Below are positions 4,913 through 41,658 of a DNA stretch of 54,157 bases, one piece after another. Position 1 is the stretch's first letter, and every line of letters starts with the position of its first letter. The notes under the pieces were generated by a model, which was not told the DNA's origin, searched no databases, and worked only from the letters and a program-made list of their open reading frames with translations. The position numbers were made by a program, and so were the translations under genes. Source of the stretch: Aedoeadaptatus coxii (lineage in GTDB: Bacteria; Bacillota; Clostridia; Tissierellales; Peptoniphilaceae); assembly GCF_001553115.1 (NCBI RefSeq), contig NZ_KQ960178.1:43042-97198 (forward strand). Direction: 5' to 3'.

Positions 4913-6241
4913 TTACGCCTTTTCTTCCTCTTCTTCCAAAAGCTTGATTTCCACGCGGGAAATGCGCTTGTCGGAAACGGCGAGGGTGGTGAGGCGAATG
5001 GAATTTTTGTAAAGTACGCTGTGTTTTTTCGTGTCTTCCGGCTCGGGAATAAAGCCTAAAAGTTCGATGGTAAGGCCGGAAATGGTTTCGTGATTTTCGC
5101 TTTCCAGATCGATGTTCAGCTCTTCGTTAATAGTGTTTAGCTCCATCATGCCGTCGGCCACGTAGGTGGAATTATTTACCTTTAAAATCGGCGGCATGTC
5201 GTCGTCGTATTCGTCTTCGATTTCGCCGACGATTTCCTCGACGATGTCTTCGATGGTGACCATGCCGGCGAGTCCGCCGTATTCGTCGATTAAAATGGCC
5301 AGGTAATTTTTCGTGCTCTGCAATTCCTGAAGCAAGCGATCGATATTTTTCGTCTCGGGCACGAAGTAAGGCTTTTTCATGACCTTGTCGATATCGATGG
5401 TTTCGTAATCCTGTTTGGCATATTCCACGAAAAGATCTTTAATGTAAATGGTACCGACGATATTGTCCGGCCCGTCGCGGTAAACGGGGACGCGAGAGTA
5501 GCCGGATTCCAGCATATCCCGAATCATGTTTTTATCGAAATCGTCGTAATCGATCATGTAAAGGGATGTACGCGGGGTCATAATTTCGTAGGCGAGTTTG
5601 TCGTCGAAGGCCATAATATTGACCATCATCACCTCGCCGCTTTCGTTGATGACGCCGTGTTGGTGGCCGACGCGGAGATAGCTTTTAATTTCCTCTTCGC
5701 TAATGTTTTTTTCCACATCTTCGGAATATTTTCCCGTGGCCTTTAAGACGGCGGTAGTGGAAAAGGAGAGAAAGCGAATATAAGGGGAGGCGAGTTTATA
5801 AAACAGGGCGATATATTTTGCAGATTTAAGGGCCGTTTTTTCCGTGTGTTGCAGGGCGACCCGTTTGGGAACGAGTTCCCCGAAGACCATGGTAAGGTAA
5901 GATAAAAACAAGAGGATTACAATAAAGGCGATGGTGTCGCCGTAGGGAATGCCCATGGAGGCGATGTGGTATGCCAAAAGGGCGCTTAAACTTCTCGCCG
6001 CAAGTCCTGCAGAGAAAAATCCCGCCAGGGTCATGCCCACGCGAACGGCGGAAATAAATCGCGTTTGATCTTCCGTCAATCGCAAAAGCGTGGCGGCACG
6101 TTTATCTCCTTCTTCCGCCATGTCCTCGATGCGTTGGCGATTTAAGGACACCATGGCGATTTCCGCAGACGCAAAAAAACCGTGGATAATCGTCAGGGCG
6201 ACGATCAGTAAAAGTTCCGGTACGAGATCGGCAAGTTCCAT
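4913..6241 (-). CDS. CNNM/CorC-type membrane protein with CBS pair
   Basis: A 442-residue protein of the hemolysin C/CorC family, thought to transport magnesium or other divalent cations. It has an N-terminal CNNM (DUF21) membrane domain (about 1-195, several hydrophobic helices), two CBS domains (about 210-335) and a CorC_HlyC domain (about 345-435). The family signatures MTPRTSLYMID, SRVPVYRDGPDNIVGTIYIK and LIDEYGGLAGMVTIEDIVEE are present. The ATG is preceded by AGGAGG. The gene is divergent from the M18 aminopeptidase; a TATAAT box (plus-strand complement near 6272-6277) could serve it but its -35 is weak. Confidence 0.92.
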   Translation of the reverse strand: MELADLVPELLLIVALTIIHGFFASAEIAMVSLNRQRIEDMAEEGDKRAATLLRLTEDQTRFISAVRVGMTLAGFFSAGLAARSLSALLAYHIASMGIPYGDTIAFIVILLFLSYLTMVFGELVPKRVALQHTEKTALKSAKYIALFYKLASPYIRFLSFSTTAVLKATGKYSEDVEKNISEEEIKSYLRVGHQHGVINESGEVMMVNIMAFDDKLAYEIMTPRTSLYMIDYDDFDKNMIRDMLESGYSRVPVYRDGPDNIVGTIYIKDLFVEYAKQDYETIDIDKVMKKPYFVPETKNIDRLLQELQSTKNYLAILIDEYGGLAGMVTIEDIVEEIVGEIEDEYDDDMPPILKVNNSTYVADGMMELNTINEELNIDLESENHETISGLTIELLGFIPEPEDTKKHSVLYKNSIRLTTLAVSDKRISRVEIKLLEEEEEKA

Positions 6242-6359
6242 TGAATAAAATCCTCCTTTATGTATATACGATTATACCCTGAAAAAGGGGAATGTGTAGG
6301 AAATATCGTGGAACGGGAGAATTTTTTGCTATACAATGGAAAAAGAGAAAGGAGAGACT

Positions 6360-7619
6360 ATGGAGATTCAAAAGTTTATAGACTTTATTGACAAAAGCCC
6401 CACCTCTTATCAGGTGGCGCGCCATTTTATAGAAGAGGCCAAAGGGTTTACCATGTTGCGCCCGGAAGATACCTGGAAATTGGAAGAGGGAAAAGGATAC
6501 AGCCTCGTCGTCGACGACGGCGGCGTCTTGCTTTTCCGCTTGGGTAGTTTGAACGACGATGAACTTGCCTTTAAGGCGGTACTGAGCCACACGGACAGCC
6601 CTCTTTTGAAATTACTGCCCGGCGGCGTACACGACATCGACGGCGGCGTGCGTTTCGACGTGGAACCTTACGGCGCCATTATTCGGTCCACGTGGTTGGA
6701 TCGCCCCCTTTCCTTAGCCGGTCGCGTTCTCGTAGAAGAGGACGGGGTAAAGAGTATTCCCGTGGATTTCGGATATGCCCTCGCGACGATCCCCAATCTT
6801 GCGCCCCATCTTCACCGGGAAGTGAATACAGGTCACGTGTACGAACCGGGAAAGGATCTCGTGCCCCTCGGTGGCGAAAGTTTGAAAGACGGGGGATTTT
6901 TGAAAGAGCTCGCTAATGTGGCAGGCGTCAAAGAGGATGGGATTTTAGATTACGATCTTTATTTTTACGCCATGGAAAAGGCCGAAGCTATCGGCAAAAA
7001 CGGCGAATGGCTTTCCGCTCCCCGTTTGGATAATCTCGCCACGGCCTACCCGGCTTTTTGCGCTCTCCTCGACGGAAAGCCGTCGAAGGCGACGACCATG
7101 CTTTACATTACGGACAACGAAGAAGTGGGCAGCTTGACGAAAAGCGGCGGCGACAGCAGTTTTTTTGCCAATGTGTTAAAGCGAATCGCCCTCTCCATCG
7201 GGGAAGAAGCTTTTTACCGCGCCCTTTCCCGCAGTTTTTTAATGAGCGCGGATATGGCACATGCCTACCATCCCAATTACGTCAATTTCTCCAACCCCTC
7301 GGCGTCGCCGAAACTCGGGGAAGGGGTGGCCATTAAAACCGGCGCGGCGAGAAGTTACGCCACCCAGGGCCACAGCAGCGCCCGCTTTAAAGCTTTGATG
7401 AAACGACAAAATCTGAAAGTGCAATACTTCGCCAATCCCCACGGGCAACGGGGCGGCTCTACCATCGGGCCTTTAAGCGTGCGCCACGTGGACATCGAGG
7501 CCATCGACGTGGGCATTCCCACATGGGCCATGCATTCCATGAGGGAAGTGGTTCATGTAGAGGATGTAAAGGATTTTTACAGCGCCATGAAGGCATTTTA
7601 CGAAGACGATCGCTTTTAG
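6360..7619 (+). CDS. apeB: M18 family aminopeptidase (aspartyl-aminopeptidase type)
   Basis: A 419-residue cytosolic dizinc aminopeptidase of family M18, which releases N-terminal acidic or other residues from peptides. Metal and catalytic motifs are visible: LSHTDSPLLKL, DNEEVGSLTKSG and SADMAHAYHPN, with a final GQRGGSTIGP and MHSMREV. The length is normal. I chose the ATG at 6360, which has AAAGGAG about 6 bases ahead, rather than an upstream in-frame ATG at 6336 without a ribosome-binding site. It opens a six-gene colinear run that ends at the ISL3 remnant. Confidence 0.93.
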   Translation: MEIQKFIDFIDKSPTSYQVARHFIEEAKGFTMLRPEDTWKLEEGKGYSLVVDDGGVLLFRLGSLNDDELAFKAVLSHTDSPLLKLLPGGVHDIDGGVRFDVEPYGAIIRSTWLDRPLSLAGRVLVEEDGVKSIPVDFGYALATIPNLAPHLHREVNTGHVYEPGKDLVPLGGESLKDGGFLKELANVAGVKEDGILDYDLYFYAMEKAEAIGKNGEWLSAPRLDNLATAYPAFCALLDGKPSKATTMLYITDNEEVGSLTKSGGDSSFFANVLKRIALSIGEEAFYRALSRSFLMSADMAHAYHPNYVNFSNPSASPKLGEGVAIKTGAARSYATQGHSSARFKALMKRQNLKVQYFANPHGQRGGSTIGPLSVRHVDIEAIDVGIPTWAMHSMREVVHVEDVKDFYSAMKAFYEDDRF

Positions 7620-16713: not shown

Positions 16714-18981
16714 TTAGCCGCTGACTTTTTTCAGTTCTTCCACCATATTTAAAGCTTTAATCTTCCGTCGTCCCAACCATTGGGCGGCGACAAAGACTGC
16801 GAGATCCAGCGCGTAAATGTAAAGGTAGCTGGTCATGGCGAAGTGGGGTTCCATGTAGACGGAAAGTTTAGAAATGGAAAGGGCGAAGAGATAGCGCACA
16901 AGGCGATCGAAGATGGGGAGGCTCAAGGGATAAAAGAGAGCCACGGCGATGGTCATGCCCAGTAAATAAATGGAGGCCACTTCGCCGTCTCCGTAGCCGA
17001 AAATTTTCAGGTAGCAAATATCTTTTTGCGATTTTTCCAAGATCAGCTTGCTGACGGTGTAGACCAGAGTAAAGTAGAAAACAATGGCCAAAATACAGGT
17101 GGTACGCAGGGCGCCGTCGAAGTTTTCCAGAAAAGCTTCCAGGTAGGCTCCCGTTTTGTCGCGATCGATGGTGGTAATCAGTAGATCGTCGTTAATTTTT
17201 AAGGGCGTATCGGACCAATAGAGATTAAAATTTCCCGGGTCTTTGTCGATCAATCGGTTGAGATTGTCCATGGGCATAAGGGCTTGAATCGAGTGAATGT
17301 CGTGGGCAATGGCGGCGACATGTAATGTTTTGTAGTGTTTCGAGCCGGGAAGTTTTACCTCGATGGCATCGCCGATGTCCAAGTTATCTCGATGGGCGAG
17401 GCCTGTGGAAATCACCACGTCATGGGGCTTCATGGATGAGGGCAAGTCACCGTCAAAGGCCGTATGTTGATCGGGGCCCAGCACATTGAGTTGTGTTTTC
17501 TCCTCGCCTTTTTTGTAATCCATGGTGAGGCTCAGTCCCTTAACTCCGTGAACGTCGGGGTCGGACGCCTTCACAAGATAGGTGTAATTGTACTTCATGT
17601 CCTTTTTAACGGAATCCGCATAGTCGTCGAACATAGGGCCCAGGGCGACGGAAAAGAGGAGCAGGAGATTGCCCACAAACATTCCGAAGAAAAGGGCGAG
17701 AACATTTAAGCGGTTTTCCGTCAAAATGCGCAGGCGGGCGGCGCGCTTAAAGGAAAATCCGTCGAATGTCGGGGCGTTCTTTCTTTTTTTGCGGTAAAAT
17801 TCCCGTCGTAAAAAGCGTAGAGGGGACAGACGGAAATAGCGAAGAAGTAGCATGCGATTGACGAGCCACACGATACCCAAGGGAATGATGGTGGTAATGG
17901 CGAAGGCCTTCAATGAAAGAATGGGCACAAAGGGTGGAAGATTATAGGAAGTGTAATAAAGGTCGGCGTAAAGGGTGTAGCCTTTTGTGTAGGCGAGGAT
18001 ATTGCCGAAAATGCCCGACAAAATAACCAGGCAGGTGGGCACGAGGCTGTAGTGGCGAATTAATGTTTTCGCTCCGTACCCCATGGAAAGGAGCGTGCCG
18101 ATGACCGGCGCTTCTTCCCGCAGCAGCCCGCGGGTTTGAAGGGCGCTGATAAACCCCAGAGAGATAAAGAGAATGACGAGGGTGATGGTCATCATGGGCA
18201 CATCGCCGCCCATGTCGTCGATAAAGTATTGGATGCAGCGATTGTCGTAGAAAGTGGTGGCACCTAAAATAGGTCCGGATTTTTCGGCATCGGAGAGAAT
18301 GTCTTCAAATCGATCCCGGGCTTTTTCTTCCGAAAGGCGCTCGTGATTTCTGTAAGAGTAGAGGTAATGATTTTTTTCTTTCAGGGAATCAAATACATCT
18401 TTTGTGACGAAGGCGACGGAAAAATGTTTCGTATCCATTGCCAGATCCCCCTGGGTTTTTAAAATCGTGGAGTAATCCGGCGTGGCCACTAAGGCCGTAA
18501 TCTTATAATCCTCGTCGTCGAGAGTTAATTTGTCCCCGGGGACGAGATTTTCGGCTTTTGCAAAATTGGCGGCGACGGCGATTTCGCCCTTGGCTTTGGG
18601 AAGGCGGCCGGCGTGAATGGCGGCGGTGTTGATTTTTTCGCGATTGGCGAAGACGCGTAGAATTTTCTCCCGCCTGTCGTCGTCTCCCGGCACGCGACAC
18701 TTACTATCTTTGTAAAAATTTTCAACGAGATCCACATCTCGTTTTTTAATGGCATCCGATCTTTCGTTTGTCAACGGATTGGCCATGAGAAATTGCCCGT
18801 CTTCCACTTTATTTTCCCGAAGCCCCTTGTAGTAAAGGGGTTTAATGGAATTTTGGCTGATAAAAAAGGAAGACGCAAAGGTCACCGTCAGAAGAGAAAT
18901 GAAAAACAGCGGTAAATAGACGCCGGGTTTTTTCAAAAACAGTCGCGGAATCCGTCGATGAATGGGGTTTTTCATTACCAT
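16714..18981 (-). CDS. ABC transporter permease, FtsX/MacB type
   Basis: A 755-residue permease with the layout of FtsX-type exporters: an N-terminal helix (about 22-42), a large extracytoplasmic domain (about 45-260), three helices (about 265-380), and a second FtsX half with its own extracellular domain (about 430-640) and three more helices to the C-terminus. No peptidase or lipoprotein signature is present. It overlaps the end of the ATPase gene. The first ATG (18981) lies 4 bases after GGAGG; a second ATG at 18975, ten bases from the site, is an alternative. The substrate is unknown; antimicrobial-peptide or lipoprotein export is typical for the class. Confidence 0.88.
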   Translation of the reverse strand: MVMKNPIHRRIPRLFLKKPGVYLPLFFISLLTVTFASSFFISQNSIKPLYYKGLRENKVEDGQFLMANPLTNERSDAIKKRDVDLVENFYKDSKCRVPGDDDRREKILRVFANREKINTAAIHAGRLPKAKGEIAVAANFAKAENLVPGDKLTLDDEDYKITALVATPDYSTILKTQGDLAMDTKHFSVAFVTKDVFDSLKEKNHYLYSYRNHERLSEEKARDRFEDILSDAEKSGPILGATTFYDNRCIQYFIDDMGGDVPMMTITLVILFISLGFISALQTRGLLREEAPVIGTLLSMGYGAKTLIRHYSLVPTCLVILSGIFGNILAYTKGYTLYADLYYTSYNLPPFVPILSLKAFAITTIIPLGIVWLVNRMLLLRYFRLSPLRFLRREFYRKKRKNAPTFDGFSFKRAARLRILTENRLNVLALFFGMFVGNLLLLFSVALGPMFDDYADSVKKDMKYNYTYLVKASDPDVHGVKGLSLTMDYKKGEEKTQLNVLGPDQHTAFDGDLPSSMKPHDVVISTGLAHRDNLDIGDAIEVKLPGSKHYKTLHVAAIAHDIHSIQALMPMDNLNRLIDKDPGNFNLYWSDTPLKINDDLLITTIDRDKTGAYLEAFLENFDGALRTTCILAIVFYFTLVYTVSKLILEKSQKDICYLKIFGYGDGEVASIYLLGMTIAVALFYPLSLPIFDRLVRYLFALSISKLSVYMEPHFAMTSYLYIYALDLAVFVAAQWLGRRKIKALNMVEELKKVSG

Positions 18982-36682: not shown

Positions 36683-36724
36683 GTTGTTAAAACAACATAC
36701 GCAAATTCCTTTTAGGTTTACAAT
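36683..36724 (+). promoter_or_regulatory. Crp/Fnr-type operator and -10 box of the DUF438 gene
   Basis: A palindrome GTTGT-TAAA-ACAAC (36683-36696) is followed, 22 bases on, by TACAAT (36719-36724). No good -35 is present. With a start about 7 bases past the -10, the palindrome is centred at -41.5, the class II position for Crp/Fnr activators. The same arrangement is found at 39140-39181. Confidence 0.75.
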
Positions 36725-36757
36725 AAAGAAAAGTGAGAAGTGAAAGGAGTTATGGAC

Positions 36758-38281
36758 ATGGCAAAAAAACTTGATTTAAATAAAACAGTCTTCGAGTTGA
36801 CGCAGGAGTATCCGGAGCTTGTCGAGATGATGGCGGGTCTTGGTTTTACCGAGGTTGCGAAAAAGCCTATGCTGCATTCTGTGGGCAAAATGATGACGAT
36901 CCCGAAGGGCGCTAAGCTGAAGAAAATTTCAATGATGGATGTAGTGACTACTCTAATGAGTAATGGATTTGAACTTATCGGCGATATACCGGATATAGAG
37001 ACTGTATCGAGAGTTGAAGGAAAGGAAGAAAAAACGAAGAATCCTTCCACAGGACGTAAAGAGCAAATAAAAGCTTATTTGAGAAGGCTTGGTGATGGAG
37101 AAGAGCTGGAAGAAGTCAGAAAAGATTTTGTCCGTGATTTTGGAGAAGTCGAGGCGTCCGAGATTATGGAAGCGGAACAGGAATTATTGAAGGAAGGCAC
37201 GCCGCTCAATGAGGTACAGCGCCTATGTGATATTCACTCTGCGCTATTTCACGGGTCCACTACGGAAGAGAAAATTGCCAATGCCGAAAAGGAAGTCGAA
37301 GCTTCGATTTTAAGAAAAAATGCTCAAGAGGAATTAAAGAAGAAAGATCAATTCCCTGAAAAGGATTATACAGATAAAAACGTAAAGGCTTCAGAACTCG
37401 CAGCAATTCCCGGGCATCCGCTTGACACGTTGAAGAAAGAAAATGAGGCATTGTCGACATTGCTTGCGAAATTTAAAGAAAGCAAAGATGAATCGCTCCT
37501 TTCTGAAATTCGTCAACTTTCAATTCATTACGCCAAGAAGGGAGATCTCCTCTATCCTCTGCTGAAAGTTAATTATGGAATATCCGGCCCTTCTGATGTG
37601 ATGTGGACGGTAGACGATGAAATTCGAGATGAGCTGCGCACCCTTGCGAGTGAAAGAGAGCATGGCAAGGAATGGAGCGCCGAGCTTGAAGCCGTGCTTA
37701 CTCGTGCTGAGGAGATGATTTATAAAGAACAGAATATTTTGTTCCCCATTTGTGCCGTTAATTTTACAGAACAGGATTGGTACGGCATTTATCGGGATTC
37801 CAAGGACTATTCTGTTTGCTTCGGTATTGAGCAGGAGATTTGGGAAGAAGCCGAAAATACAGTGACGACCATGGCGGCCGCCTCGGAAGGAGAGATTGTC
37901 ATGCCGGGAGGGCGCTTGACCATAGAGCAGCTTACTGCACTTTTGAACGCGATTCCCATGGAGATCACATTTGTCGATGCAGATAATATTAATCGATTCT
38001 TCGGCGAAGGAACGAAGGTGTTCAAACGTCCTCTCGCAGCACTGAACCGTGAGGTTTTCTCTTGTCATCCGCCGAAAATCGAGCCGATGGTGCGTCAGAT
38101 TATAGGTGATTTCAGAGATGGCAATCGCGATCTTGTAGAGGTTTGGATGGAAAAAGAGGGGCGGACAATGCTTGTTAAATATATGGCCGTACGAGACGGG
38201 GCCGGCAAGTACCTAGGCACCCTGGAACTGGTACAAGATATGGAATTTACGAAAGAACACTTCCTTGGAAAAGAAGCATAA
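36758..38281 (+). CDS. DUF1858-DUF438-hemerythrin-PAS protein
   Basis: A 507-residue cytoplasmic protein with four parts: DUF1858 (about 5-65), DUF438 (about 85-155), a hemerythrin-like HHE helical bundle (about 165-335, with HSALFHGST, IPGHPLDTLKKEN and HYAKKGDLLYPLL) that probably holds a diiron site, and a C-terminal PAS domain (about 365-495, with VDADNINRFFGEGTKVFKRP). Proteins of this design are thought to sense or bind oxygen or nitric oxide. Of three in-frame starts I chose the ATG at 36758, eight bases after AAAGGAG; the GTG at 36740 and the ATG at 36752 overlap or crowd that site. It carries a Crp/Fnr-type operator matching that of the flavodiiron operon, suggesting shared control. 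Confidence 0.9.
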   Translation: MAKKLDLNKTVFELTQEYPELVEMMAGLGFTEVAKKPMLHSVGKMMTIPKGAKLKKISMMDVVTTLMSNGFELIGDIPDIETVSRVEGKEEKTKNPSTGRKEQIKAYLRRLGDGEELEEVRKDFVRDFGEVEASEIMEAEQELLKEGTPLNEVQRLCDIHSALFHGSTTEEKIANAEKEVEASILRKNAQEELKKKDQFPEKDYTDKNVKASELAAIPGHPLDTLKKENEALSTLLAKFKESKDESLLSEIRQLSIHYAKKGDLLYPLLKVNYGISGPSDVMWTVDDEIRDELRTLASEREHGKEWSAELEAVLTRAEEMIYKEQNILFPICAVNFTEQDWYGIYRDSKDYSVCFGIEQEIWEEAENTVTTMAAASEGEIVMPGGRLTIEQLTALLNAIPMEITFVDADNINRFFGEGTKVFKRPLAALNREVFSCHPPKIEPMVRQIIGDFRDGNRDLVEVWMEKEGRTMLVKYMAVRDGAGKYLGTLELVQDMEFTKEHFLGKEA

Positions 38282-38293
38282 AATTGCACAAAA

Positions 38294-38331
38294 AAATTCT
38301 CTGCTAAGATTAAAGGCAGAGAATTTTTTTG
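38294..38331 (+). terminator. Terminator after the DUF438 gene
   Basis: An 11-bp stem AAATTCTCTGC / GCAGAGAATTT (38294-38304 with 38316-38326) followed by T residues. Confidence 0.88.
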
Positions 38332-38339
38332 TGGAAATG

Positions 38340-38485
38340 GTGCATTAATTGATTTCGGTATCTTCTTTTTTATTCCATGGGACATGGCTTGTCCTCGAGA
38401 TAAAAAAGATCATCCGCTTCTACGGGAGGTAATGGATACGATCGAACGGCTATTTATTCATTATGAACAGTCTCCGTCAATATGA
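38340..38485 (+). pseudogene. Possible 3' gene remnant, unrecognised
   Basis: A plus-strand frame without a start codon reads IPWDMACPRDKKDHPLLREV, then MDTIERLFIHYEQSPSI and a TGA at 38483-38485. It looks protein-like, but I cannot assign a family. It overlaps the end of the convergent crp gene. It may be the tail of a gene replaced by the stress cassette. Confidence 0.25.
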
Positions 38486-39125
38486 ATTTATTTTTTCGAT
38501 AAGTTATAAGCCCTTCCTCCTGCATTTTAGAAAGTTCTTTTGACATGGCACTGCGATTTACTGCGAGGTAATCAGCAAGTTGTTGACGATTAAACGGTAT
38601 GGTAAATTGCGAACTTCCGTGCTCCAGTGCCTGCTCGGACAGGTATGACAGGAGTCGGTCTCGTAGAGATTTGGATGCGGTATGCATCATACGGGAGGAC
38701 ATATTCAAATTGTTTTGAGCGGAGATGCGAAGCATATTCTGAATGATACGCTTATGATAGGCGCATCCTTTTTGGCAGGTCGTCAGAATGTTGTGCATTT
38801 TCAAAAAGATTACTTTAGTGTTCTCTGTAGCGACGACATCACACAGAAGTTCCTTTCCGGGTATAGCCGCGTAGTTTTCCGCAAAAACCTCTCCCCTACC
38901 GATGTGTCCGAATATGATGCTGTTTCCCCAATAGAGATTAACCACGATATTGACGCTACCGGATTCTATAAGCCCGATCTCGTTGACGGGCGATCCGGCT
39001 CGGAAGATGACGTCGTTTTTTTGGAATCTGCGCTCACTTGCCCCCAGGCAGTGGAGGAGCTCTGTTATTTCGTCTTCTCTAATACCGCGAAAAAGCTGCG
39101 TGTTTGCCAGAAAAAATGTATTCAT
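38454..39125 (-). CDS. Crp/Fnr-family transcriptional regulator
   Basis: A 223-residue regulator with an N-terminal cyclic-nucleotide-binding-type sensor domain (about 12-125), a long dimer helix, and a C-terminal helix-turn-helix (about 165-200) with recognition segment RQQLADYLAVNRSAMSKEL. Cysteines lie at about 26 and 96 and in a TTCQKGCAYH pair (about 117 and 121); these could bind a metal, cluster or heme, though the arrangement differs from classical FNR. I chose the ATG at 39125, four bases after GGAGG; the frame stays open further upstream into the operator region. A GTTGC-N4-GCAAC palindrome lies just before its ribosome-binding site, so it may repress itself while activating the divergent operon. 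Confidence 0.92.
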   Translation of the reverse strand: MNTFFLANTQLFRGIREDEITELLHCLGASERRFQKNDVIFRAGSPVNEIGLIESGSVNIVVNLYWGNSIIFGHIGRGEVFAENYAAIPGKELLCDVVATENTKVIFLKMHNILTTCQKGCAYHKRIIQNMLRISAQNNLNMSSRMMHTASKSLRDRLLSYLSEQALEHGSSQFTIPFNRQQLADYLAVNRSAMSKELSKMQEEGLITYRKNKFILTETVHNE

Positions 39126-39139
39126 AAAACCTCCAATTA

Positions 39140-39181
39140 GTTGCTGTGGCAACATACATGTTGCAACAATCGTACTACAAT
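39140..39181 (+). promoter_or_regulatory. Crp/Fnr-type operator and -10 box of the cupin-ferredoxin-fprA operon
   Basis: A palindrome GTTGC-TGTG-GCAAC (39140-39153) lies 22 bases before TACAAT (39176-39181), the same 42-base layout as at 36683-36724, including a shared ATAC directly after the palindrome. A second inverted repeat (GCAACAT-AC-ATGTTGC, 39149-39164) overlaps it and could bind a second dimer. The intergenic region is shared with the divergent crp gene. Confidence 0.78.
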
Positions 39182-39215
39182 ATAAATAGAAAGTCGATAG
39201 AGAGGAGTAAAAAAC

Positions 39216-39411
39216 ATGGGAAGTGTCAATATAAAGGGAAAAACGATCATTAGCGATATCCTAAGCCGATATTGCGAAGCAATGGAAGTATTTTATGGAA
39301 TCGGCATGCATCGGTTCGGATGTCCTGCCTTCAGGGGGATAGTCTAGAGGAGGCATGCGCCGTCCATGGGTCGACATTATAAAGGTCGTAAAATCTATTA
39401 ATGAAAAATAA
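39216..39411 (+). pseudogene. DUF1858 protein gene with two frameshifts
   Basis: An ATG after GAGGAG begins a typical small DUF1858 protein: ISDILSRYCEAMEVFYGIGM, then HRFGCPA. The frame then runs into a TAG at about 39345. Shifting frame recovers QGDSLEEACAVHG, and a second shift at a GGG run recovers VDIIKVVKSINEK with a TAA at 39409-39411. The restored protein is about 65 residues long, as expected for the family, with the usual cysteine in FGCP. Two one-base losses break it; a sequencing error is possible at least at the G run. It would be the first gene of the operon. Confidence 0.75.
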
Positions 39412-39432
39412 CCGAGACAGGGAAGTGATGAA

Positions 39433-40086
39433 ATGAAAGAAAAAACAGGTAAAGTCTTTTCCATAGGAAAGGATAATCCGGCGATTCCGGGATGTACCGT
39501 ATCGAGAGAGATTGCCGGAGGAGTCAATGCAATCTCATATTTTTCCCTTGCTCAAAATACCGATATCAGTGCGGAAATTTATCCTTATCACAAACTGATC
39601 ATCGTTGCGGAAGGAAGTGTGGAGGTTTACGGAAATGACGGCTTTTCACAAATGTTGCAAGCAGGGGACAGCATCTTAACATTGACGGAGATTCCTATAG
39701 GAATACGAACGGCAGAAGGTAGCATATACACAGAAGTATGCGTAGGAAAGGAGACCATAATGAACGAATTAGTCAAAGCAGGAGAAGTTTTTAAGCTGGG
39801 AGATCTTGTACCCTATGCGGAAGGTAAGATCGTCAATATGGACGTAGTGCACAATGACAAGATGAAGCTCGTCGTCATGGCCTTTGATGAAGGAACGAGC
39901 CTTTCCGAACACGCTGCTCCGGGCGAGGCAATTATCTTCGCCTTGGACGGCGAGGCAGTGGTCGGATACGAGGGAAAAGATCATGTAATTCATGCCGGTG
40001 AAAATTTTCACTTTGCCAAGGGCGGTCTGCATTCAGTAAAATCGACAAAGAAATTTAAGATGGCTCTTCTTATTACCTTGAAATAG
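39433..40086 (+). CDS. Double cupin protein with internal start site
   Basis: A 217-residue protein made of two small cupin domains. The first (about 30-105) lacks a clear metal-binding histidine set. The second (about 125-217) keeps likely ligands His160 and Glu165 (LSEHAAPGEA) and His200 (GGLHSV). Between them, AAAGGAG at 39747-39753 lies six bases before an in-frame ATG (39760, Met110), a proper translation start for the second cupin alone, whose length is that of the common stand-alone family. The cell may therefore make both a fusion and a single cupin. It stands between the broken DUF1858 gene and a ferredoxin. The function is unknown. Confidence 0.85.
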   Translation: MKEKTGKVFSIGKDNPAIPGCTVSREIAGGVNAISYFSLAQNTDISAEIYPYHKLIIVAEGSVEVYGNDGFSQMLQAGDSILTLTEIPIGIRTAEGSIYTEVCVGKETIMNELVKAGEVFKLGDLVPYAEGKIVNMDVVHNDKMKLVVMAFDEGTSLSEHAAPGEAIIFALDGEAVVGYEGKDHVIHAGENFHFAKGGLHSVKSTKKFKMALLITLK

Positions 40087-40106
40087 TAGAAAGGGAGGTT
40101 ATCATA

Positions 40107-40292
40107 GTGAAATACAGAGTAAATGAAAGCTGCATCGGATGTGGACTTTGCGTAGGGATATGCCCGGAAGTATTTTCTATGACTGATGAAGACAAAGCAA
40201 AGGCTATTGAAACAGAAGTACCTGCGGATTCAGAAGCCGCAGCAGAAGAAGCGAAGGATAGTTGCCCGGTAGGTGCAATAGAAGAAGCATAA
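40107..40292 (+). CDS. Single-cluster [4Fe-4S] ferredoxin
   Basis: A 61-residue ferredoxin of the Fer4_13 type with one cluster: CIGCGLCVGICP near the N-terminus supplies three ligands and the C-terminal SCPVGAI the fourth. The second cluster motif of clostridial ferredoxins is absent. The rest is very acidic. The start is GTG, eight bases after GGGAGG. Directly before the flavodiiron gene, it is a plausible electron donor to that enzyme, perhaps with a rubredoxin encoded elsewhere. Confidence 0.92.
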   Translation: MKYRVNESCIGCGLCVGICPEVFSMTDEDKAKAIETEVPADSEAAAEEAKDSCPVGAIEEA

Positions 40293-40431
40293 AAGCAGAT
40301 GTTGTGAATTGGAGATAGGCGTTTATGAAGGGATATCGAGACATCTGGCATACCGGAGAAACCGAAAAGACGATTTTCGTCCACTAATTAAAAAAGATTT
40401 CGATTATATTCGATAACTATAGAGAAGGAGA
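40293..40431. other. Spacer between ferredoxin and flavodiiron genes
   Basis: This gap holds a 20-codon frame (40325-40387, MKGYRDIWHTGETEKTIFVH) with only a weak ribosome-binding site. I see no terminator or promoter of good quality, so fprA is probably read from the upstream promoter. Confidence 0.35.
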
Positions 40432-40440
40432 GTGGAAATA

Positions 40441-41658
40441 ATGAAAAAGCAAATTAAGAACAATGTATATTGGGTCGGCAAAATTGACTGGGAACTTCAA
40501 GAATTTCATGGAACAGAATACTCCGTGCACAATGGATCCAGCCAAAATGCTTATTTGATCAAAGAAGAAAAGACGGTATTAATCGATACTGTATGGACCC
40601 CCCATAAAGAAGAGTTTGTAAAGAATTTAAAGAGCGAAATCGACCTGAAAAAAATTGATTATATCGTTATTAACCATGGAGAACCCGATCATTCAGGATC
40701 TTTATTAGAAATTATGGAGGAAATTCCAAATACGCCGATTTTCTGTACAGCCAACGGTAAAAAATCTCTTATTGGACAGTACCATCATCCGGAATGGGAC
40801 TATAGAGTTGTAAAGACCGGTGATTCTGTGGATATAGGTAATGGGAAACAATTAGTATTTGTAGAAATGAGAATGCTTCATTGGCCGGATTCAATGGCGA
40901 CATATTTGACCGGAGACAATATTTTGTTTTCCAACGATGCCTTCGGTCAGCATTACGCCTTAAGTGAGCTCTTCAATGACAAGGCAGACCCGACGATTCT
41001 CTGGAATGAAGCTATGAAGTACTATGCGAACATTTTAAATCCTTTTTCGTCTTTTGCCAAAAAGAAGATTGAAGAAATTGTGGCTATGAACTTGCCCATA
41101 GATATCATTGCGACAAGCCACGGTAGTATTTGGAGAGAAAATGCTCTAGAAATAATAGAGAAATATGCAGAATGGGCAGATGCTTATAAGGAAGATCAGG
41201 TTACAATTATCTACGACTCGATGTGGGGAGCAACTAAAAAAATTGCCCACAAAATTGCAGATGATATAAGAGAGCTTTCCCCATCGACAAGGACAAAAGT
41301 TCTATCTGTAGCAGAAATGGACAGAAATGACATCATGACTGAAGTTTTTAAATCGAAGGCCATAGCTGTAGGCTCTCCCACAGTCGGACAATCTGCAATT
41401 ACCACGATTTCAGGCTGGTTACACTTCCTTCAAGAGCTTAAATTTAAAGACAAAGTAGCGGGAGTTTTCGGTTCCTACGGATGGTCGGGAGAAGGTAACA
41501 AAGTTTTACGAGAAGAGCTCGAAAAGGCAGGTTTTAAACTTATAGACGAAGAGTTGAAAGCTTCTTGGATGCCGGATGATGCATTCTTAAAAGGAACTGA
41601 AGAGTTCTCTAAAGCTCTGCTCGATGCGTCGACATTTGAAGATAAAGACAAAAATTAA
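40441..41658 (+). CDS. fprA: Flavodiiron protein (NO/O2 reductase)
   Basis: A 405-residue cytoplasmic enzyme that reduces oxygen to water or nitric oxide to nitrous oxide. The N-terminal metallo-beta-lactamase-like domain (1-250) has the diiron ligands in NHGEPDHSG, a histidine in MLHWPDSM, FSNDAFGQHYA and TSHGSIWR. The C-terminal flavodoxin-like domain (about 255-400) has the FMN loop YDSMWGATKK and GSPTVGQSA, GSYGWSGEG. There is no fused rubredoxin. The ATG at 40441 is ten bases after AAGGAG; a GTG at 40432 is too close. Last gene of the Crp/Fnr-controlled run. Confidence 0.95.
   Translation: MKKQIKNNVYWVGKIDWELQEFHGTEYSVHNGSSQNAYLIKEEKTVLIDTVWTPHKEEFVKNLKSEIDLKKIDYIVINHGEPDHSGSLLEIMEEIPNTPIFCTANGKKSLIGQYHHPEWDYRVVKTGDSVDIGNGKQLVFVEMRMLHWPDSMATYLTGDNILFSNDAFGQHYALSELFNDKADPTILWNEAMKYYANILNPFSSFAKKKIEEIVAMNLPIDIIATSHGSIWRENALEIIEKYAEWADAYKEDQVTIIYDSMWGATKKIAHKIADDIRELSPSTRTKVLSVAEMDRNDIMTEVFKSKAIAVGSPTVGQSAITTISGWLHFLQELKFKDKVAGVFGSYGWSGEGNKVLREELEKAGFKLIDEELKASWMPDDAFLKGTEEFSKALLDASTFEDKDKN

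What the first reader, a model, noticed from the sequence alone, without database searches (positions are those of the whole stretch)
36683..41658. Crp/Fnr-controlled stress island: DUF438-hemerythrin-PAS, cupin, ferredoxin and flavodiiron genes under twin operators
Two promoters 2.5 kb apart share one 42-base layout: GTTGY-N4-RCAAC, then ATAC, then TACAAT starting 22 bases after the palindrome, with no -35 box. That puts the palindrome at -41.5 in both, the class II activator position. The divergent crp/fnr gene sits beside one of them. Seen: the sites, spacing and gene set. Known: Crp/Fnr proteins bind TTGAN6TCAA-like palindromes at -41.5, and flavodiiron and hemerythrin-like proteins handle NO and O2. 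Inferred: the regulator activates the DUF438 and cupin-ferredoxin-fprA units as one system for NO, O2 or redox defence. The pairing of a DUF438-hemerythrin-PAS protein with a double cupin in such a regulon is new to me.
Basis: partly seen in the sequence, partly recalled or inferred. Interest (0 to 1): 0.8.

Follow-up and report, generated by a model that had tools for sequence, protein, structure and literature searches.

The report
HcpR-type regulator with twin operators
Two matching DNA switches very probably let one HcpR-like sensor protein turn on nitric-oxide and redox defence genes in an anaerobic bacterium; this kind of switch is known, but the gene set and a differently tuned sister switch in the same cell are new details.

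Summary
GTTGTTAAAACAAC (36683) and GTTGCTGTGGCAAC (39140) each end 22 nt before TACAAT and are the only GTTGY-N4-RCAAC sites in the 1.84-Mb genome. Both sites recur with this spacing in 9 of 9 family genomes whose regulator is at least 54% identical. G003, which keeps the DUF438 gene without the regulator, has no site. Among 79 further loci with upstream DNA, 69 carry GTTG-N6-CAAC at the regulator; TANNNT starts exactly 22 nt on in 67 of 68. The regulator is HcpR-type: hcp or frdX matches lie on the divergent strand in 58 of 76 loci. Here hcp sits elsewhere, behind a paralog with Pro for Ser in the recognition helix and a GTAAC-N4-GTTAC operator with the same spacing. Best reading: a class II HcpR-type activator of the DUF1858-DUF438-hemerythrin-PAS gene and the cupin-ferredoxin(-flavodiiron) unit, probably for NO defence. 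That unit's first gene, DUF1858, is broken here. Ser-type regulators conserve a Cys3-His quartet (91 of 94) absent from 14 of 14 Pro-type regulators beside hcp. Nothing was tested at the bench.

The parts
36683..36696 (+). Operator 1, GTTGTTAAAACAAC, before the DUF1858-DUF438-hemerythrin-PAS gene
   Evidence: GTTG-N6-CAAC conserved in 9 of 9 family genomes with a regulator at least 54% identical; in the 80-locus set 11 of 13 DUF438 genes with complete upstream DNA
36719..36724 (+). -10 box TACAAT, 22 nt after operator 1
   Evidence: TANNNT at 22 nt in 9 of 9 family genomes
36758..38281 (+). DUF1858-DUF438-hemerythrin-PAS_10 protein, 507 aa; AAAGGAG at 36743-36749
   Evidence: Pfam
38454..39125 (-). 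HcpR-type Crp/Fnr regulator, 223 aa from ATG 39125; recognition helix LAVNRSAMSKEL
   Evidence: Pfam, linkage, tree, model, length
39140..39153 (+). Operator 2, GTTGCTGTGGCAAC, between the regulator and the cupin unit
   Evidence: 69 of 79 further loci carry GTTG-N6-CAAC here
39176..39181 (+). -10 box TACAAT, 22 nt after operator 2
   Evidence: TANNNT at offset 22 in 67 of 68 further loci
39216..39347 (+). First open piece (43 aa) of a broken DUF1858 gene; similarity continues in other frames to about 39410
   Evidence: Pfam E 1.7e-8; frames and intact relatives in L123, L124, L125, L139; DUF1858 standalone gene of L094 = TIGR03980, Hcp-associated
39433..40086 (+). Double cupin protein, 217 aa
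   Evidence: Pfam Cupin_2; closest solved structure 3rns, E 1.6e-17
40107..40292 (+). Small 4Fe-4S ferredoxin, 61 aa
   Evidence: Pfam Fer4_13
40441..41658 (+). Flavodiiron protein without rubredoxin domain, from ATG 40441 (a GTG lies at 40432)
   Evidence: Pfam ODP and Flavodoxin_1; 6etb NorV E 2.2e-142, 1ycf E 7.2e-105

Best explanation
The regulator (38454-39125, minus strand) is an HcpR-type Crp/Fnr dimer that binds two GTTGY-N4-RCAAC palindromes. Each is placed so that its centre falls near -41.5 of a promoter with a good -10 box and no consensus -35 hexamer, the class II activator position. From operator 1 it turns on a DUF1858-DUF438-hemerythrin-PAS protein. From operator 2 it turns on the divergent unit (broken DUF1858)-double cupin-ferredoxin, and probably the flavodiiron gene behind it. 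Operator 2 also lies directly in front of the regulator's own ribosome site, so autoregulation is likely. The unit looks like an hcp operon without hcp: relatives with the same type of regulator and operator have DUF1858-cupin-ferredoxin-hcp or frdX-hcp there. In this genome the one hcp found is behind a second HcpR-like paralog with Pro at the recognition position and a GTAAC-N4-GTTAC operator. Likely role: defence against NO, with the flavodiiron protein a candidate NO reductase and the ferredoxin a candidate donor. Shown by sequence: sites, spacing, conservation, linkage, the paired operators. Inferred: binding, activation, NO as signal, autoregulation, co-transcription of the flavodiiron gene, enzyme roles.
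For: Only two strict sites in the genome, both with TANNNT at 22 nt. 9 of 9 family genomes with a regulator at least 54% identical have both sites at that spacing, while G003 with the DUF438 gene but no regulator ortholog has none. 69 of 79 further loci have the palindrome at the regulator and 67 of 68 have TANNNT at offset 22 against a background of 0.0115 per position. DUF438 genes in that set: 11 of 13 palindrome, 10 with the box. hcp or frdX matches on the divergent strand in 58 of 76 loci; cupin-ferredoxin-hcp in G012, whose regulator is 75% identical. The hcp-side paralog has GTAAC-N4-GTTAC, 22 nt before TATACT. A FLxPIH-type protein is under GTAAC here and its relative (34% identical, E 1e-30) is divergent from the GTTG-type regulator in G013, which ties the two systems together.
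Against: No experiment. hcp, the defining HcpR target, is not under this operator type here. In the whole genome the strict pattern is not more frequent than its reversed control, and the same holds in most of the genus. 10 of 79 loci lack the palindrome within 150 nt of the regulator; 4 of these have one with the box elsewhere. frdX matches at E 1e-5 may include other ferredoxins. The flavodiiron gene is in a different place in congeners, separated here by about 150 nt from the ferredoxin gene, so it may not belong to the unit. The loci are related to one another, and some are the same genomes as in the family set.
Confidence: 0.75

Rival explanations
1. The regulator senses oxygen or redox state (FNR-like, through a metal or Fe-S centre held by the conserved Cys3-His quartet) rather than NO, and the island is an oxygen-tolerance unit.
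For: Cys3-His quartet in 91 of 94 Ser-type regulators; flavodiiron proteins can reduce O2, as the C. difficile one is titled (PMC6033852, search listing only); a hemerythrin domain is present.
Against: Linkage to hcp/frdX in relatives; published HcpR work points to NO: the C. [quoted passage not shown] The quartet is not the FNR arrangement (recalled).
Confidence: 0.2
2. The regulator is mainly a repressor at these sites and the 22-nt phase reflects promoter overlap rather than activation.
For: A repressor model is proposed for D. desulfuricans HcpR2 (PMC5701242, passages); operator 2 lies in front of the regulator's own ribosome site.
Against: Exact helical phase at 22 nt in 67 of 68 loci and absence of a -35 consensus fit RNA polymerase contact better; hcp expression is lost without HcpR in B. 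thetaiotaomicron (PMC13370916, passages).
Confidence: 0.07
3. The flavodiiron gene is an independent neighbour with its own control; only the DUF438 gene and the cupin-ferredoxin genes form the regulon.
For: About 150 nt between ferredoxin and flavodiiron genes; different place in G004-G006; absent from the fetched stretch of G001 and G007; flavodiiron matches in only 3 of 76 further loci; higher identity to congeners than its neighbours.
Against: In G004-G006 it lies directly behind the cupin gene under the same operator; no GTTG site of its own in the window.
Confidence: 0.3
4. The two palindromes are chance matches.
For: The genome-wide count of the strict pattern is not above its reversed control (2 against 5).
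Against: Cross-genome conservation with fixed spacing despite diverged spacers.
Confidence: 0.01

Closest known systems
HcpR2 branch of the HcpR regulon in Clostridia and others (PMC1274295; passages seen)
   Same: Crp/Fnr regulator next to hcp/frdX genes in relatives; five-base half-sites with a 4-base gap; the paper ties position 181 of the regulator to the operator and says hemerythrin- and ferredoxin-like genes are often in HcpR regulons.
   Different: The window protein has Ser (not Pro) there and GTTGY, not GTAAC; its two units here include no hcp. The paper says C. difficile and C. thermocellum have Ser at 181 with a different motif, shown in a figure I could not see, so this operator may be partly in print.
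C. difficile HcpR (PMC12915319; abstract and passages)
   Same: HcpR beside frdX-hcp; needed for NO tolerance.
   Different: Only frdX-hcp had a predicted site among its regulated genes; no hemerythrin, cupin or flavodiiron in its text.
D. desulfuricans HcpR1 and HcpR2 (PMC5701242; passages)
   Same: Two HcpR paralogs in one cell with separate jobs; Fe-S and heme proposed as different cofactors.
   Different: HcpR1 binds TGTGA-N6-TCACA; not the Ser/Pro pair nor these targets.
P. gingivalis HcpR (PMC12750200, passages; PDB 9day)
   Same: Same fold (Foldseek E 4.7e-13; profile E 3.8e-18); NO-dependent activator of hcp.
   Different: About 16% identical in the structural alignment; its heme residue Met68 was not mapped onto the window protein.

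Membership tests
HcpR (Crp/Fnr regulators of hcp) | Crp/Fnr fold: cNMP-binding-like barrel plus HTH_Crp | tested here: met
   Pfam PF00027 and PF13545; AlphaFold2 model pLDDT 86.6 and CRP-family Foldseek hits
HcpR (Crp/Fnr regulators of hcp) | Gene linkage with hcp or frdX among orthologs | tested here: met
   58 of 76 loci (tblastn E 1e-5, divergent strand up to 5 kb); G012 cupin-ferredoxin-hcp
HcpR (Crp/Fnr regulators of hcp) | hcp itself is a target in this genome | tested here: not met
   The one hcp found is on contig 18 with a GTAAC operator and no GTTGY site within the 20-kb stretch. I therefore call the protein HcpR-type rather than HcpR
HcpR2 subgroup with Pro-181 and GTAAC-N4-GTTAC | Pro at position 181 and GTAAC operator | tested here: not met
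   Ser in the helix and GTTGY operators; alignment to CRP numbering made by eye. The contig-18 paralog meets both
HcpR (Crp/Fnr regulators of hcp) | Response to NO, heme or other cofactor | not testable with these tools
   No bench data; the conserved Cys3-His quartet is only suggestive
FNR (oxygen sensor) | N-terminal cysteine cluster plus a fourth cysteine (pattern recalled) | tested here: not met
   No cysteine before C26 in the protein from ATG 39125
Flavodiiron proteins | Lactamase-like and flavodoxin domains with HxExDH, H, D, H ligands (ligand pattern recalled) | tested here: met
   Domains; HGEPDH, LHWPDS, SNDAFG, SHGSIW in the translation. O2 or NO preference not testable

The most novel reading that the evidence does not exclude
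This anaerobe runs two parallel nitrosative-stress channels with two HcpR-type paralogs that share promoter geometry but are insulated by one recognition residue (Ser against Pro) and its matching operator (GTTG against GTAA). The Ser-type paralog carries a new kind of sensor site, C26 plus C-x3-C-x2-H, binding a metal or Fe-S centre unlike those of FNR or heme-HcpR. The two channels therefore answer different signals or doses and drive different NO-removing enzymes (flavodiiron against Hcp).
Probability: 0.3. Interest if true: 0.68.

Novelty: new variant of a known kind. Interest (0 to 1): 0.5.

Why it matters
It ties an uncharacterised DUF1858-DUF438-hemerythrin-PAS protein and a cupin of unknown function to an HcpR-type regulon through conserved operators, which gives both a testable role. 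It offers a clean test of how two Crp/Fnr paralogs with near-identical promoter geometry stay insulated in one cell. It also points to a conserved Cys3-His quartet, in a large group of clostridial regulators, that looks like a sensor site.

Tried and rejected
Chance palindromes: rejected by the cross-genome footprint.

A larger GTTG regulon in this genome: 6 other GTTG-N6-CAAC places examined; five have no TANNNT at 22 nt and one that has it lies inside an ORF. In G001, G004-G008, G012 and G013 strict sites also occur elsewhere. Of those whose surroundings I looked at (L047, L103, L104, L105, L055, L106) none has TANNNT at 22 nt; the rest were not looked at.

'ATAC' as a part of the operator only: it sits at -34 to -31 relative to the inferred start, so a degenerate -35 element is as likely. 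Left open.

Residue 181 as sole cause of the operator difference: not proven. The Ser- and Pro-type regulators beside hcp form two branches of the tree apart from a few odd rows, so many residues differ together. An Ala-type protein (G024) has GTTGCATATGCAAC before hcp. A Pro-type protein with the quartet (G035b) had neither operator in the stretch read in front of it. G021 (Pro-type) showed no operator and G011's has no TANNNT at 22. G010 shows a Pro-type helix and a GTAAC site but did not pass the protein filter, so it is not in the 14. G008, G013, G017 and G023 gave no helix match and were left out of the Pro-type count; G013, G017 and G023 have a GTAAC site, G008 none. My note says 13 of 13; the count used here is 13 of 14.

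Geometry of the quartet: the model puts C26 at the end of one helix and the other three at or just before the start of the long dimer helix, where confidence is lower. No coordinates are given out, so distances were not measured.

The printed motif for Ser-181 HcpR of C. difficile: looked for in the text of PMC1274295, not there; the figure is not held.

Print searches for this gene set: (DUF438 with hemerythrin: 0 papers; 2 papers with three of five terms; PMC5701242 seen in passages, PMC4287179 in the listing only), also (listings).

Numbering: number the regulator from its third residue; add 2 for the protein from ATG 39125.
Full report
WHAT WAS CLAIMED AND WHETHER IT IS THERE. The finding names two promoters 2.5 kb apart with one layout. 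Both are present as written: GTTGTTAAAACAAC at 36683-36696 and GTTGCTGTGGCAAC at 39140-39153, each followed by ATAC and by TACAAT starting 22 nt after the palindrome. GTTGY-N4-RCAAC is expected 0.09 times in the window and 1 of 100 shuffles reached two. In the whole genome (1.84 Mb, 30 contigs) the strict pattern occurs only at these two places, with 5 for the reversed control. Frequency alone therefore says little genome-wide; position and conservation carry the case.

GENES. Pfam gives DUF1858, DUF438, hemerythrin and PAS_10 in the first protein (36758-38281). It gives cNMP_binding and HTH_Crp_2 in the regulator (38454-39125, minus strand), Cupin_2 in the double cupin (39433-40086), Fer4_13 in the ferredoxin (40107-40292), and ODP plus flavodoxin in the flavodiiron protein (ATG 40441 to 41658). 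Intact 71- to 74-residue versions stand first in the divergent unit in L123, L124, L125 and L139. NCBIfam names the standalone domain of one relative (L094) 'hybrid cluster protein-associated redox disulfide domain'.

CONSERVATION IN THE FAMILY. Among 41 genomes (own plus 40 relatives), 9 have a regulator at least 54% identical: G000, G001, G004-G008, G012, G013. In 9 of 9 a GTTG-N6-CAAC palindrome stands between the regulator and its divergent gene, with TANNNT exactly 22 nt away, and in 9 of 9 one stands before the DUF438 gene with TANNNT at 22 nt. The DUF438-side sites of G004, G006 and G007 have one mismatch to the strict pattern. The spacers between palindrome and -10 box have diverged, so this is not plain carry-over of sequence. 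The divergent gene is the cupin in most of these but a FLGPIH-type protein in G008 and G013. G003, of the same genus, keeps the DUF438 protein (53%) but its best regulator match is 29%, and it has no site. G020 has the DUF438 protein and a one-mismatch site at the right spacing, but its best regulator match is 31% with five TGA. More distant regulators in the 41 genomes (33-41% identical) show the strict palindrome in G038, G035, G011, G033 and G022 with TANNNT at 22 nt and a one-mismatch one in G018 before hcp.

CONSERVATION BEYOND. Its pattern fixes the Arg of the helix but not the next residue. One locus has no upstream DNA. Of the other 79, 69 have GTTG-N6-CAAC within 150 nt of the regulator; in 68 of these enough DNA is there, and TANNNT starts at offset 22 in 67. 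The background frequency of TANNNT in these loci is 0.0115. Ten lack the palindrome there (L140, L150, L155, L172, L174, L175, L183, L187, L194, L199); L183 has one mismatch. L150, L174, L175 and L194 have a palindrome with TANNNT at 22 nt elsewhere in the locus. The DUF438 gene has complete upstream DNA in 13 loci: 11 carry the palindrome, 10 with TANNNT at 22 nt; L131 has one mismatch, L134 none, and L148 has a palindrome without the box. Apart from the regulator sites, the 738 kb of these loci hold 26 further palindromes, DUF438 ones included; 19 have TANNNT at 22 nt on one side. Some loci are the same genomes as in the family set and all are related, so these are not independent events.

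WHAT THE REGULATOR IS. In 58 of 76 loci with at least 1500 nt upstream, a match to hcp (39) or frdX (37) lies on the divergent strand within the stretch held (up to 5 kb; tblastn, E 1e-5). Cupin was found in 19, ferredoxin in 13, DUF1858 in 13, a FLGPIH-type protein in 6, flavodiiron in 3; 6 had none of the set. At that cut-off frdX matches may include other ferredoxins. In G012 (75% identical) the unit is cupin-ferredoxin-hcp. This places the regulator with HcpR, the regulator of hybrid cluster protein genes (PMC1274295, passages). The window's unit reads as an hcp operon without hcp.

THE SISTER SYSTEM. The one hcp found in this genome is on contig 18, directly behind a paralog (29% identical) whose helix reads LAVPRPSLSREL. 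Between them is GTAACAACGGTTAC, 22 nt before TATACT. That is the HcpR2 motif GTAACnnnnGTTAC that the 2005 paper ties to Pro at position 181; the window regulator reads LAVNRSAMSKEL, with Ser there (position matched by eye). GTAACnnnnGTTAC occurs twice in the genome (control 4), both times with TANNNT 22 nt on: before hcp, and before a 183-residue protein on contig 12. The latter is 34% identical (E 1e-30) to the FLGPIH-type protein that is divergent from the GTTG-type regulator in G013. Across the family, 13 of 14 Pro-type regulators beside hcp have the GTAAC operator, 12 of the 13 with TANNNT at 22 nt (G021 lacks the operator, G011 the box). None of the 79 Ser-type loci with upstream DNA shows GTAA-N6-TTAC in the 150 nt before the regulator. 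The groups fall on separate branches of a FastTree tree, with G024 (Ala-type, GTTG operator before hcp) inside the Ser side and G035b (Pro-type) at its base.

A POSSIBLE SENSOR SITE. C26, C117, C121 and H124 are all present in 91 of 94 Ser-type regulators (window, 80 loci, 13 others). G011 and G022 have lost all four and L195 two of them. None of the 14 Pro-type regulators beside hcp has the set; one further Pro-type protein, G035b, does. Joint loss suggests one site. It is not the FNR arrangement (recalled). No cofactor is shown, and distances could not be measured.

MECHANISM. With TACAAT as -10 box the palindrome centre falls near -41.5, the class II activator position (established for Crp/Fnr; recalled). 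The fixed 22-nt phase in 67 of 68 loci supports contact with RNA polymerase. A -35 consensus is absent; ATAC sits where it would be. NO as signal is inferred from the hcp/frdX linkage and from published HcpR work: C. [quoted passage not shown] gingivalis HcpR is a heme-dependent NO sensor (PMC12750200, passages). The flavodiiron protein is closest in the PDB to flavorubredoxin NorV (6etb, 2.2e-142) and to 1ycf, 'nitric oxide reductase' (7.2e-105), but such enzymes may use O2 or NO.

THE FLAVODIIRON GENE. It is 97% identical in protein and 91% in DNA to G004-G006, while the neighbouring genes there are about 78-82% in DNA. Gene order differs: behind the ferredoxin here, directly behind the cupin in G004-G006. 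Recent transfer or strong conservation are both possible. Its place in the regulon is likely but unproven.

VERDICT. A real, well-conserved HcpR-type regulon: known kind, new variant in gene content and in the paired operators. I found no paper describing this gene set, within an open-access library and mostly from listings.

Noticed in passing
39216-39410: Broken DUF1858 gene heading the cupin unit; the first piece also lacks the first Cys of the pair that intact relatives have (MHRFGCP against MHCLGCP). Intact copies exist in L123, L124, L125 and L139.
   Followed up: yes
40421-41646: The flavodiiron gene is 91% identical in DNA to congeners G004-G006 while its neighbours are about 78-82%, and its place in the unit differs.
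   Followed up: partly
L121-L200, regulator promoters: Besides the -10 box, four spacer positions are nearly fixed: A at 16 (97%), T at 18 (92%), T at 20 (98%) and A at 21 (97%), that is TNTAN before the -10 box instead of the usual TRTGN; and TTGTTG at 5-10 recurs (53-75% per position). Unexplained.
   Followed up: no
L088:8080-8685, L090:8450-9049, L119:454-1005: A FLxPIH-type protein of about 180-200 aa stands under GTTG operators in G008 and G013 and under a GTAAC operator in the window's genome; L088 and L119 are 34% identical. No Pfam match for L088, no NCBIfam match for L088 or L119.
   Followed up: partly
L087:9056-9424; named loci L124-L129 and L131: A DUF488 gene follows the regulator on the same strand in G012 (Pfam) and in 7 named loci; in the window none was seen in the 172 nt between the regulator and DUF438 genes.
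   Followed up: no
36758-38281: In the hemerythrin domain H220, E228, H257 and E324 are the same in all 21 aligned rows, but the usual HHxxKE stretch reads HYAKKGD in the window and most rows (usual motif recalled).
   Followed up: no
L100 (G000:C4) 6151-7503 and 17526-18188: A second DUF438-type protein (38% identical) and a third Crp/Fnr regulator lie on contig 4; no strict GTTGY or GTAAC site on that contig.
   Followed up: partly
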